Below, piece by piece: positions 30,064 through 32,042 of a stretch of 39,175 nucleotides of DNA (position 1 is its first letter; each line of letters begins with the position of its first letter). The position numbers were made by a program, and so were the translations under genes. The notes beneath the pieces were generated by a model. That model was not told the origin of the DNA. It did not search any database and saw only the letters and a program-made list of their open reading frames with translations. The DNA comes from Gammaproteobacteria bacterium. Its GTDB lineage: Bacteria > Pseudomonadota > Gammaproteobacteria > UBA5861. Location of the stretch: positions 1 through 39,175 of the forward strand of contig JAKSCV010000013.1 in the NCBI GenBank assembly GCA_022360445.1. The letters run 5' to 3'.

Positions 30064-30555
30064 GTGGATGATGCTGATGAAAAACGATCACTCCTACGAG
30101 GCCGAAAGCATGCCCGGCGAAAAGCGGTGCAGGCACTCTATCAATGGCATATGAACGCATTGATGGGGGAGGAGCCTCCTACGGACCAGTTCGTTAACGA
30201 TTTTCTGAGTTACCAGGATATGGGTAACGCAGACAATGACTACTTCTGCGAACTGGTGAAAGGCGCCTTAAAACACCGCCGTCGAATCGACAGTTTACTG
30301 GCTGATCAGATGATTCGGGATACGGAACAGGTTGATGCGGTTGAACTGGCGATTCTGCAACTCGCAACCTACGAGCTGATTGACCGCATCGATGTGCCGT
30401 TTAGAGTGGCAATCAATGAAGCTGTTGAGCTGGCAAAAACATACGGTGCTGATCAGGGGCATAAATTTGTTAATGGGATTCTTGACAAGCTGGCACAGGA
30501 TTTAAGAGCCGTGGAGCGTCAGGCTGGTCGCGCACCGTCTCATGAGCCGAAGTGA
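30064..30555 (+). CDS. nusB: Transcription antitermination factor NusB
   Basis: RNA-binding all-helical protein that, with NusE (S10), binds boxA RNA in rRNA leaders. The 163 residues include the N-terminal arginine-rich RNA face RKHARRKAVQALYQW near 14-28, VDAVELAILQLATYEL near 92-107, and the conserved C-terminal RVAINEAVELAKTYG with KFVNGILDKLA. The start is GTG with AAAGG about nine bases upstream. It follows ribH by 12 bases and overlaps thiL by 14. Confidence 0.95.
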   Translation: MDDADEKRSLLRGRKHARRKAVQALYQWHMNALMGEEPPTDQFVNDFLSYQDMGNADNDYFCELVKGALKHRRRIDSLLADQMIRDTEQVDAVELAILQLATYELIDRIDVPFRVAINEAVELAKTYGADQGHKFVNGILDKLAQDLRAVERQAGRAPSHEPK

Positions 30556-31534
30556 GTTTGATCTGATTCAAGCCCACTTCATGCGTGCGGTGAAAAATCG
30601 TGATGATGTTGTATTGGGGATTGGCGATGATGGTGCGGCACTCAAATATTCCGAAAAGCAAGACTTGATTGTCTCCATCGACACGCTGGTGGCCGGTGTA
30701 CACTTTCCGGAACCCACAGTCCCCCAAGACATTGCTCATAAAGCGCTGGCGGTTAACTTGAGTGATCTGGCTGCAATGGGGGCGACTCCGGCCTGGGTCA
30801 CATTATCGTTGACCTTGCCAAACGCCGATGAGGCCTGGGTGTCGGATTTTTGCACAGGCTTTTTCGCCTTGGCTGATCAGCACCGGGTGCAGCTCGTGGG
30901 GGGTGATACAACCCGAGGGCCGCTGTCAGTCACCGTGCAGGCACACGGGTTTGTGCCTACGGGTCAGGCATTGCGACGAGATGGCGCGTATGCAGGCGAT
31001 CTCATTTTTGTGACTGGCGAATTAGGTCTCGGCGGGTGGGGGCTCGCCGCAGTCACGCAAAAGCTGGCTCCTGAATATCAGAGGCTCGATCATACACGTG
31101 CGATTGTGCACCTTAATCGACCAGAACCCAGGTTGGCAGTCGGCGAGCAGCTCCGGGGAATGGCCAGCGCGTGTATTGACCTGTCAGATGGTCTGGCAGG
31201 TGATCTTCGACATATTCTGGAACGCAGCCAGGTAGGTGCCGTGATTGATGCTGAGCAAATTCCGCTTCCAGGCATGTACTGCCTGCAGGGTGATCGCCAG
31301 CAAGCACTGGAGTACGCGCTCTTTGCGGGGGATGACTATGAACTGTGTTTTACCGTATCCCAGGAAAAGCTCGGGCAATTATCGCCGGACCATTGGTTGT
31401 TTTCCGCCTGCTGGCCCATAGGCAAAATTACAGATGAACCGGGATTGCGTATAAAGACGTATGATTCACACGGCTGCAGTAATATTCATACGCTCGCGCG
31501 GTCAGGGTACACACACTTCGATTCAGCGGATTGA
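30542..31534 (+). CDS. thiL: Thiamine-monophosphate kinase
   Basis: Phosphorylates thiamine monophosphate to the active cofactor thiamine diphosphate. The 330 residues carry the PurM/ThiL-fold motifs in order: GIGDDGA near 26-32, DTLVAGVHF near 46-54, NLSDLAAMGA near 72-81, VGGDTTRGPLS near 118-128, DLSDGLAGDL near 216-225 and AGDDYEL near 262-268. Its ATG lies inside the end of nusB, so translation is probably coupled. The nusB-thiL-pgpA order is standard in gammaproteobacteria. Confidence 0.96.
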   Translation: MSRSEFDLIQAHFMRAVKNRDDVVLGIGDDGAALKYSEKQDLIVSIDTLVAGVHFPEPTVPQDIAHKALAVNLSDLAAMGATPAWVTLSLTLPNADEAWVSDFCTGFFALADQHRVQLVGGDTTRGPLSVTVQAHGFVPTGQALRRDGAYAGDLIFVTGELGLGGWGLAAVTQKLAPEYQRLDHTRAIVHLNRPEPRLAVGEQLRGMASACIDLSDGLAGDLRHILERSQVGAVIDAEQIPLPGMYCLQGDRQQALEYALFAGDDYELCFTVSQEKLGQLSPDHWLFSACWPIGKITDEPGLRIKTYDSHGCSNIHTLARSGYTHFDSAD

Positions 31535-31545
31535 TATATCCGTCT

Positions 31546-31553
31546 GAGGAGGG
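31546..31553 (+). promoter_or_regulatory. Strong Shine-Dalgarno of pgpA with no AUG/GUG/UUG behind it
   Basis: GAGGAGGG here is the best ribosome-binding sequence near the pgpA start, yet the next in-frame codon at a workable distance is ATC at 31557 (four bases after AGGAGG). The nearest standard start, TTG at 31602, is about 50 bases away and has no ribosome site. Confidence 0.65.
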
Positions 31554-31556
31554 CCT

Positions 31557-32042
31557 ATCAAACTAGGAATCGACAATTTATTTTCACCGCCTGTCAACTT
31601 CTTGGGATTAGGACTGGGGTCAGGCCTTTCGCCATGGATGCCCGGCACGATGGGCACGGTAGCGGCAATTGCGCCTTATCTTGCATTGCAATCGTTGCCG
31701 TTTTGGCTTTATCTCAGCTTCGTATTGGCTGCCGCTCTGGTGGGCATTGTGATCTGTGGTGCAACAGCCGATGCCTTGGGCGTACATGATCATGGTGCCA
31801 TTGTCTGGGATGAGTTTGTAGGCTTTTGGGTGACCATGATTGCCGCACCGACCGGCTGGCAATGGATTGTGGCCGGGTTTTTATTGTTTCGTTTTTTTGA
31901 CATCGTGAAACCCTGGCCAATCCGCTGGCTTGATGAGCACGTTGGTGGTGGCGTCGGGATTATGCTGGATGACCTGATCGCCGGCATCATGGCACTTGTT
32001 TGCCTCCAGTGCACGCACTATGCGCTCAGTCGGCTGGTTTGA
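31557..32042 (+). CDS. pgpA: Phosphatidylglycerophosphatase A, start codon anomalous
   Basis: Inner-membrane phosphatase converting phosphatidylglycerophosphate to phosphatidylglycerol. Motifs: GLGSGLSPWMPGTMGT, HDHGAIVWDEFVGFW, DIVKPWPIRW and GGVGIMLDDLIAGIMA, plus three to four membrane helices. Conventional callers would begin at TTG 31602 (146 residues). The frame is open back to the TGA at 31545, and the extra residues KLGIDNLFSPPVNFLG resemble the N-terminal part present in E. coli PgpA. I therefore begin at ATC 31557 (161 residues), placed behind a strong Shine-Dalgarno. The codon may be a real non-AUG start or an ATG read as ATC. The family is certain, the start is not. Confidence 0.85.
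   Translation: MKLGIDNLFSPPVNFLGLGLGSGLSPWMPGTMGTVAAIAPYLALQSLPFWLYLSFVLAAALVGIVICGATADALGVHDHGAIVWDEFVGFWVTMIAAPTGWQWIVAGFLLFRFFDIVKPWPIRWLDEHVGGGVGIMLDDLIAGIMALVCLQCTHYALSRLV

What the first reader, a model, noticed from the sequence alone, without database searches (positions are those of the whole stretch)
31546..31604. pgpA appears to start at AUC behind a strong Shine-Dalgarno
GAGGAGGG is followed at four to five bases by ATC, and the frame from there encodes an N-terminus like that of other PgpA proteins. The only standard start, TTG at 31602, has no ribosome site and trims conserved sequence. Either this is a rare AUC start, which would limit PgpA synthesis, or ATG has been misread or mutated to ATC.
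Basis: partly seen in the sequence, partly recalled or inferred. Interest (0 to 1): 0.5.

Follow-up and report, generated by a model that had tools for sequence, protein, structure and literature searches.

The report
AUC start codon for pgpA
In a little-known lineage of gammaproteobacteria the membrane-lipid gene pgpA has no ordinary start codon at its expected beginning and very probably starts at AUC behind an unusually strong ribosome site, as the gene for initiation factor IF3 appears to do in the same genome.

Summary
GAGGAGGG lies at 31546-31553 and ATC at 31557-31559; the pgpA frame has no ATG, GTG or TTG before 31602. A congeneric species, 9% different in pgpA DNA, keeps both ribosome site and ATC, so a misread base is excluded. 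The ATC lies 21 codons before a conserved serine; in 74 of 109 homologous loci the best-supported start lies 21-23 before it, whereas TTG 31602 would lie 6 before. The predicted ribosome-site pairing (-12.6 kcal/mol) is beaten by 0.4% of 1293 genes of this genome. In a census of 1527 predicted genes (1.76 of 3.46 Mb), only pgpA and infC had ATN behind a site of -9 kcal/mol or better with at least 8 codons of coding sequence before the first ordinary start; both are ATC. Best explanation: a real, inherited AUC start, offset by a very strong Shine-Dalgarno, perhaps helped by coupling to thiL, and likely IF3-sensitive. Limited synthesis and IF3 control are inferred, not shown. Against: shallow conservation, and a TTG at codon 8 with a fair ribosome site in the sister species. 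ATN starts with strong ribosome sites are a known kind; this is a new member.

The parts
30542..31534 (+). thiL (thiamine-monophosphate kinase), the gene upstream; its stop TGA lies 22 nt before the ATC
   Evidence: TIGR01379 thiL 319 bits, cut-off 184.15, scanned from 30548 on; the start at 30542 is the first M of the open frame printed, not tested further
31546..31553 (+). Shine-Dalgarno GAGGAGGG, core AGGAGG 31547-31552, 4 nt before ATC
   Evidence: Read directly; -12.6 kcal/mol, 0.4% of 1293 genes stronger; TGAGGAGGGC unchanged in the congeneric species
31557..31559 (+). ATC, proposed start codon of pgpA
   Evidence: Conserved in the congeneric species; 21 codons before the serine of GSG, where homologues start; the only ATN, CTG, GTG or TTG triplet in any frame starting within 12 nt after GAGGAGGG (by eye)
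31557..32042 (+). pgpA coding sequence from the proposed start (161 codons plus stop), phosphatidylglycerophosphatase A
   Evidence: PF04608 145.2 bits; 34 synonymous and 8 amino-acid-changing codons against the congeneric species
31602..31604 (+). TTG, first canonical start codon in the frame; rival start, judged unlikely
   Evidence: No ribosome site, +1.5 kcal/mol; 6 codons before the conserved serine, against a minimum of 14 among the chosen starts of 109 loci
31522..31548 (+). possible RNA hairpin with the thiL stop in its loop, abutting the ribosome site; a weak hint at coupling, not conserved in form
   Evidence: 35-nt fold -11.8 kcal/mol, z -2.0; in the sister species a different hairpin, -12.9, z -1.8, with the stop in its stem; 79-nt folds are no better than shuffles, z -0.9 and -0.1

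Best explanation
pgpA of this lineage starts at AUC (31557-31559). The initiator tRNA reads AUC with a mismatch at the third base. A near-perfect Shine-Dalgarno 4 nt upstream holds the 30S subunit on the site, and ribosomes finishing thiL 22 nt upstream may help supply it. [quoted passage not shown] Shown here: the sequence, its sharing by two species, the match to homologous start positions, the exceptional ribosome site, and the parallel with infC. Inferred: use of AUC in the cell, lowered output, IF3 sensitivity, coupling.
For: Same SD and ATC in G001/UBA12305 while flanks changed: 5 of 22 intergenic bases differ, none in TGAGGAGGGC. The best-supported canonical start lies 21-23 codons before the conserved serine in 74 of 109 homologous loci, and ATC gives 21. 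Of 107 loci outside the genus, 106 have ATG, GTG or TTG 17-45 codons before that serine; all 29 loci read around the one exception have ATG at 24-26. SD of -12.6 kcal/mol, 0.4% of 1293 genes stronger. Only pgpA and infC pass the ATN census of about half the genome. infC of this genome has no canonical start before codon 25 of its open frame and has ATC 8 nt after AAGGGGG. Codons 8-15 after ATC, which lie before TTG 31602, show 3 synonymous and no amino-acid changes. IF3 repression of non-canonical starts: passages of PMC5472188.
Against: No expression, peptide or ribosome-profiling data. Only two species of the order are held, so conservation is shallow: with fourfold-site divergence of 0.277, three bases stay unchanged by chance with probability 0.38, ten SD bases with 0.04. 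Codons 2-7 show 1 synonymous and 2 amino-acid changes, so substitutions do not prove coding there. The sister species has TTG at codon 8 with a fair SD (-6.9 kcal/mol; the window has TTA) and GTG at codon 13, so it does have canonical codons it could use. The 4-nt spacer is at the short end. The anti-SD is assumed from E. coli, since no 16S gene was found in either assembly. Half the genome was not in the census.
Confidence: 0.85

Rival explanations
1. Translation starts at TTG 31602, and the ATC and ribosome site are leftovers.
For: It is the first canonical start in the frame, is kept in the sister species, and the Pfam PgpA match begins 2 residues after it.
Against: No ribosome site (+1.5 kcal/mol); 6 codons before the conserved serine against a minimum of 14 among chosen starts of 109 loci; leaves an exceptionally strong ribosome site unused in two species; the NCBIfam match starts 6 residues before it.
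Confidence: 0.06
2. A version of the best explanation without function: AUC is the start but is neutral baggage. An ATG drifted to ATC long ago, the strong SD and coupling keep output adequate, and no regulation is involved.
For: One base change suffices; pgpA is under purifying selection (34 synonymous, 8 amino-acid-changing codons); PAP2-family proteins that might share the reaction exist in both genomes (2 each).
Against: Not returned to ATG in either species although one change would do it; the same codon as infC. Neither point is decisive.
Confidence: 0.4
3. A sequencing error or a very recent mutation turned ATG into ATC.
For: Fragmented assembly (110 contigs). A start-codon change seen in a single genome does occur, at L006.
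Against: The same ATC stands in a second species with 44 differences in 483 bases of pgpA.
Confidence: 0.01
4. The frame is entered by frameshifting from an upstream start (TTG 31531, or ATG in the other species) rather than by initiation at ATC.
For: TTG 31531 overlaps the thiL stop; the other species has an ATG next to it in the same frame.
Against: That frame ends at TAG 31564-31566 in the window but runs on in the other species, and no slippery heptamer is seen by eye.
Confidence: 0.02

Closest known systems
infC (IF3) with ATT in E. coli and ATC in Streptomyces (passages of PMC5472188)
   Same: ATN start; infC of this very genome also appears to have ATC, behind a strong ribosome site
   Different: infC feeds back on its own product; PgpA is a lipid phosphatase with no such loop known
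cvfC1 (AUU) and ccpN (AUA) of Staphylococcus aureus (start of abstract and passages of PMC13009471)
   Same: Conserved ATN start behind an extended Shine-Dalgarno; reporters gave about 10% of AUG in poor medium, up to 30% for ccpN in rich medium
   Different: Confirmed by ribosome profiling and reporters; other genes, other phylum, AUU or AUA rather than AUC
rnhC (ATC) of Listeria monocytogenes (passages of PMC13068326)
   Same: Natural ATC start, reported there as experimentally confirmed
   Different: Unrelated gene; its ribosome site was not compared here
sigR (GTC) of Streptomyces (passages of PMC5472188)
   Same: Non-canonical start whose output is held down by IF3
   Different: GTC codon; IF3 control and physiological need were tested there
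pcnB (AUU) of E. coli (title only, in the reference list of PMC13009471)
   Same: Gammaproteobacterial gene said to be limited by an AUU start
   Different: pcnB of this genome has an ATG 8 codons into its open frame

Membership tests
genes with a non-canonical ATN start codon | ATN at the start site and no ATG, GTG or TTG at the homologous position | tested here: met
   Caveat: the sister species has TTG at codon 8
genes with a non-canonical ATN start codon | strong Shine-Dalgarno at workable spacing | tested here: met
   -12.6 kcal/mol, 4-nt spacer, used by 17 of 163 counted SD-ATG pairs
genes with a non-canonical ATN start codon | start codon conserved in relatives | tested here: met
   One other species, the only other one of the order held; shallow, chance 0.38 for the ATC alone
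genes with a non-canonical ATN start codon | initiation at that codon shown by peptide, profiling or reporter | not testable with these tools
   No expression data
IF3-repressed genes (infC, sigR type) | expression rises when IF3 fidelity falls and the response is lost with ATG | not testable with these tools
   Needs a reporter experiment
phosphatidylglycerophosphatase A (PgpA) | Pfam PF04608 above its cut-off | tested here: met
   145.2 bits against 28
NCBIfam equivalog NF008288 (a narrower PgpA model) | score above its curated cut-off | tested here: not met
   199.7 bits against 226; residues 10-154 align to 12-157 of 165. Membership of this narrower model is not claimed; PgpA family membership rests on PF04608

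The most novel reading that the evidence does not exclude
pgpA belongs to an IF3-controlled set in this lineage: by sharing the AUC start of infC, PgpA output rises and falls inversely with IF3 activity, tying phosphatidylglycerol synthesis to the state of the translation machinery.
Probability: 0.15. Interest if true: 0.6.

Novelty: new member of a known kind. Interest (0 to 1): 0.42.

Why it matters
Few natural non-canonical starts have been characterised, and start prediction leans on ATG, GTG and TTG alone (both said in passages of PMC5472188). A shared AUC start on a lipid-synthesis gene, with the same codon as infC of the same genome, adds a case in Gammaproteobacteria and suggests a simple screen: strong Shine-Dalgarno plus ATN plus coding sequence before the first ordinary start. 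In about half of this genome that screen gave infC and pgpA and no other ATN.

Tried and rejected
Rejected: sequencing error (second species); TTG 31602; frameshift from TTG 31531 (by eye). The second in-frame ATC, 31569-31571, was rejected: it is 16 nt from the SD core and is GTC in the other species.

Led nowhere: 16S rRNA to read the anti-SD (0 of 2 assemblies). A first census by coding potential alone flagged 179 of 1527 genes; infC was among the 60 rows printed, pgpA was not. An SD-motif census found ATC, ATT and ATA twice each, against up to 5 for other codons, so no genome-wide surplus of ATN starts; pgpA was the only ATN with a 6-nt match. Weaker ATC candidates (L135:35451, L190:2725, L180:1280) were looked at by eye only; L180 looked frame-broken, and the others are not excluded. 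A PgpC (YfhB, TIGR01545) search found none in 2 genomes. Folds near the site are weak and differ between the species. In one search neighbouring codons of one ribosome site count as separate hits; of the 16 hits I kept the two ATN.

Limits of the homologue set: one search kept the best 80 of 533 confirmed relatives (itself a capped list); one search gave loci for 30 of 39 genomes with a match; one search gave loci for 30 of 53 genomes with a match, L006 among them.

Literature: the lists (titles and abstract starts, at most 20 shown per search) showed no report of a non-canonical pgpA start. Of the papers listed, I opened passages of PMC5230787 only. Most subscription papers are not in the library. 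The paper measuring all 64 codons was not held. A passage of PMC6925171 lists ATC in both its high (19.0-43.9% of ATG) and low (0.01-6.5%) groups, so I took no number for AUC from it. Passages of PMC11497404 were not used.

Full report
What is there. Between thiL (stop TGA 31532-31534) and pgpA the window reads GAGGAGGG at 31546-31553 and ATC at 31557-31559. The pgpA frame opens after a TGA at 31545-31547 and has no ATG, GTG or TTG until TTG 31602. The core AGGAGG ends 4 nt before ATC. The protein is PgpA by Pfam (145.2 bits, cut-off 28); it falls short of the narrower NCBIfam equivalog (199.7 of 226). The upstream gene is thiL.

Not a misread base. Only one other species of the whole order is held, in the same genus (G001). 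Its locus L002 and the named record L031 (UBA12305) are identical wherever both are shown in the alignment, apart from its last few unaligned bases, so I count them as one species. In ungapped comparison pgpA differs from the window at 44 of 483 bases and thiL at 113 of 984, yet the second species has the same TGAGGAGGGC and the same ATC, with changed bases on both sides. This excludes an error and dates the ATC to before the split. As evidence of selection it is modest: fourfold sites differ at 64 of 231, giving chance probabilities of 0.38 for an unchanged ATC and 0.04 for ten unchanged ribosome-site bases.

Where homologues start. I took 109 homologous loci (L002-L110, the congeneric L002 and L031 included). 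For each, chose the canonical start with the longest Shine-Dalgarno match, or the most upstream one where none had a match. That start lies 21-23 codons before the serine of the GSG motif in 74 of 109, and never closer than 14. The ATC gives 21 and TTG 31602 gives 6. Of the 107 loci outside the genus, 106 have a canonical start 17-45 codons before the serine; the one without is L006. In the order of L006, 53 of 59 genomes had a match. The 29 further loci returned were read, and all 29 have ATG at 24-26, where L006 reads ACG ATC ATT, so that case looks like a change in one genome. L003-L030 are unnamed and may repeat species among L032-L110.

Ribosome site. Predicted pairing with the E. coli-type anti-SD is -12.6 kcal/mol in both species, and 0.4% of 1293 genes in the sample have a stronger one. 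infC has -10.5 (4.9% stronger) and TTG 31602 has +1.5. Among SD-ATG pairs counted in the sample, 4-nt spacings occur (17 of 163) though 5 and 6 are commonest. The anti-SD is assumed; no 16S gene was found in either assembly.

Genome census. From 1.76 Mb of the 3.46 Mb genome (plus the window) a hexamer model gave 1527 predicted genes. I asked at which codons, at least 8 before the first canonical start and followed by a positive coding score up to it, a site of -9 kcal/mol or better stands upstream. Of 2512 positions in 324 eligible genes, 16 passed. Two are ATN, both ATC: pgpA and infC. The other 14 are neighbouring codons of the same two sites or codons in three other genes. With a laxer motif rule, ATN codons were no commoner than others, so the sample shows no general habit of ATN starts. 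infC of this genome has no canonical start before codon 25 of its open frame and has ATC 8 nt after AAGGGGG; an ATA two codons later cannot be ruled out. In the sister species the same ATC and site stand, but a GTG, by eye without a ribosome site, comes at codon 16. That infC starts at ATT in E. coli and ATC in Streptomyces is in passages of PMC5472188.

What counts against. Codons 2-7 show one synonymous and two amino-acid changes between the species; codons 8-15 show three synonymous and none, and codon 18 adds one more synonymous change. So substitutions support coding upstream of TTG 31602 but not right up to ATC. The sister species has TTG at codon 8, with a ribosome site of -6.9 kcal/mol, where the window has TTA, and GTG at codon 13; there, a shorter form could start. 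No expression data exist for either.

How it probably works. AUC is read by the initiator tRNA with a third-base mismatch. [quoted passage not shown] a strong Shine-Dalgarno offsets this. Published parallels: S. aureus cvfC1 (AUU) and ccpN (AUA) have extended ribosome sites and gave about 10% of AUG output in poor medium, up to 30% for ccpN in rich medium (passages of PMC13009471); rnhC of Listeria starts at ATC (passages of PMC13068326); sigR of Streptomyces uses GTC and is held down by IF3 (passages of PMC5472188). thiL neighbours pgpA widely: 101 of 109 loci have a ThiL-like frame on the same strand. In the 97 of these with a canonical start 17-30 codons before the serine, the gap from thiL stop to pgpA start runs from -14 to +99 and is under 25 in 89. 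The window's 22 nt fits, so coupling is plausible. A short hairpin upstream of the site holds the thiL stop in its loop in the window; the sister species forms a different one with the stop in its stem, and longer folds are no better than shuffles, so I give it little weight.

Verdict. AUC start: 0.85. New member of a known kind. Whether it regulates anything is open: drift with compensation (0.4) and IF3-linked control (0.15) are both compatible with the data.

Noticed in passing
L192 (G000:C25:30087-30629, minus strand) and L191: infC of this genome has no canonical start before codon 25 of its frame (codon 16, a GTG, in the sister species); ATC, or ATA two codons on, behind AAGGGGG is the likely start in both.
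   Followed up: yes
   Followed up: partly
L031:2008-2010 (codon 8 after ATC): The sister species has TTG with AGGAG upstream where the window has TTA; a possible second, shorter start in that species only.
   Followed up: partly
window 31522-31548: Predicted hairpin with the thiL stop codon in its loop, next to the ribosome site; a different hairpin at the same place in the sister species, with the stop in its stem.
   Followed up: partly
L135:35451-36290 and L190:2725-3933 (own genome): Two other genes whose coding potential begins before the first canonical start, with ATC behind a weaker ribosome site.
   Followed up: no
G000 and G001: No YfhB/PgpC-type phosphatase found in either genome; two PAP2-family matches in each.
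   Followed up: no
PMC5230787 (one passage): E. coli pgpA is mentioned there as one of two cellular leaderless transcripts found in a transcriptome study, so unusual initiation of pgpA has been noted elsewhere in a different form.
   Followed up: no
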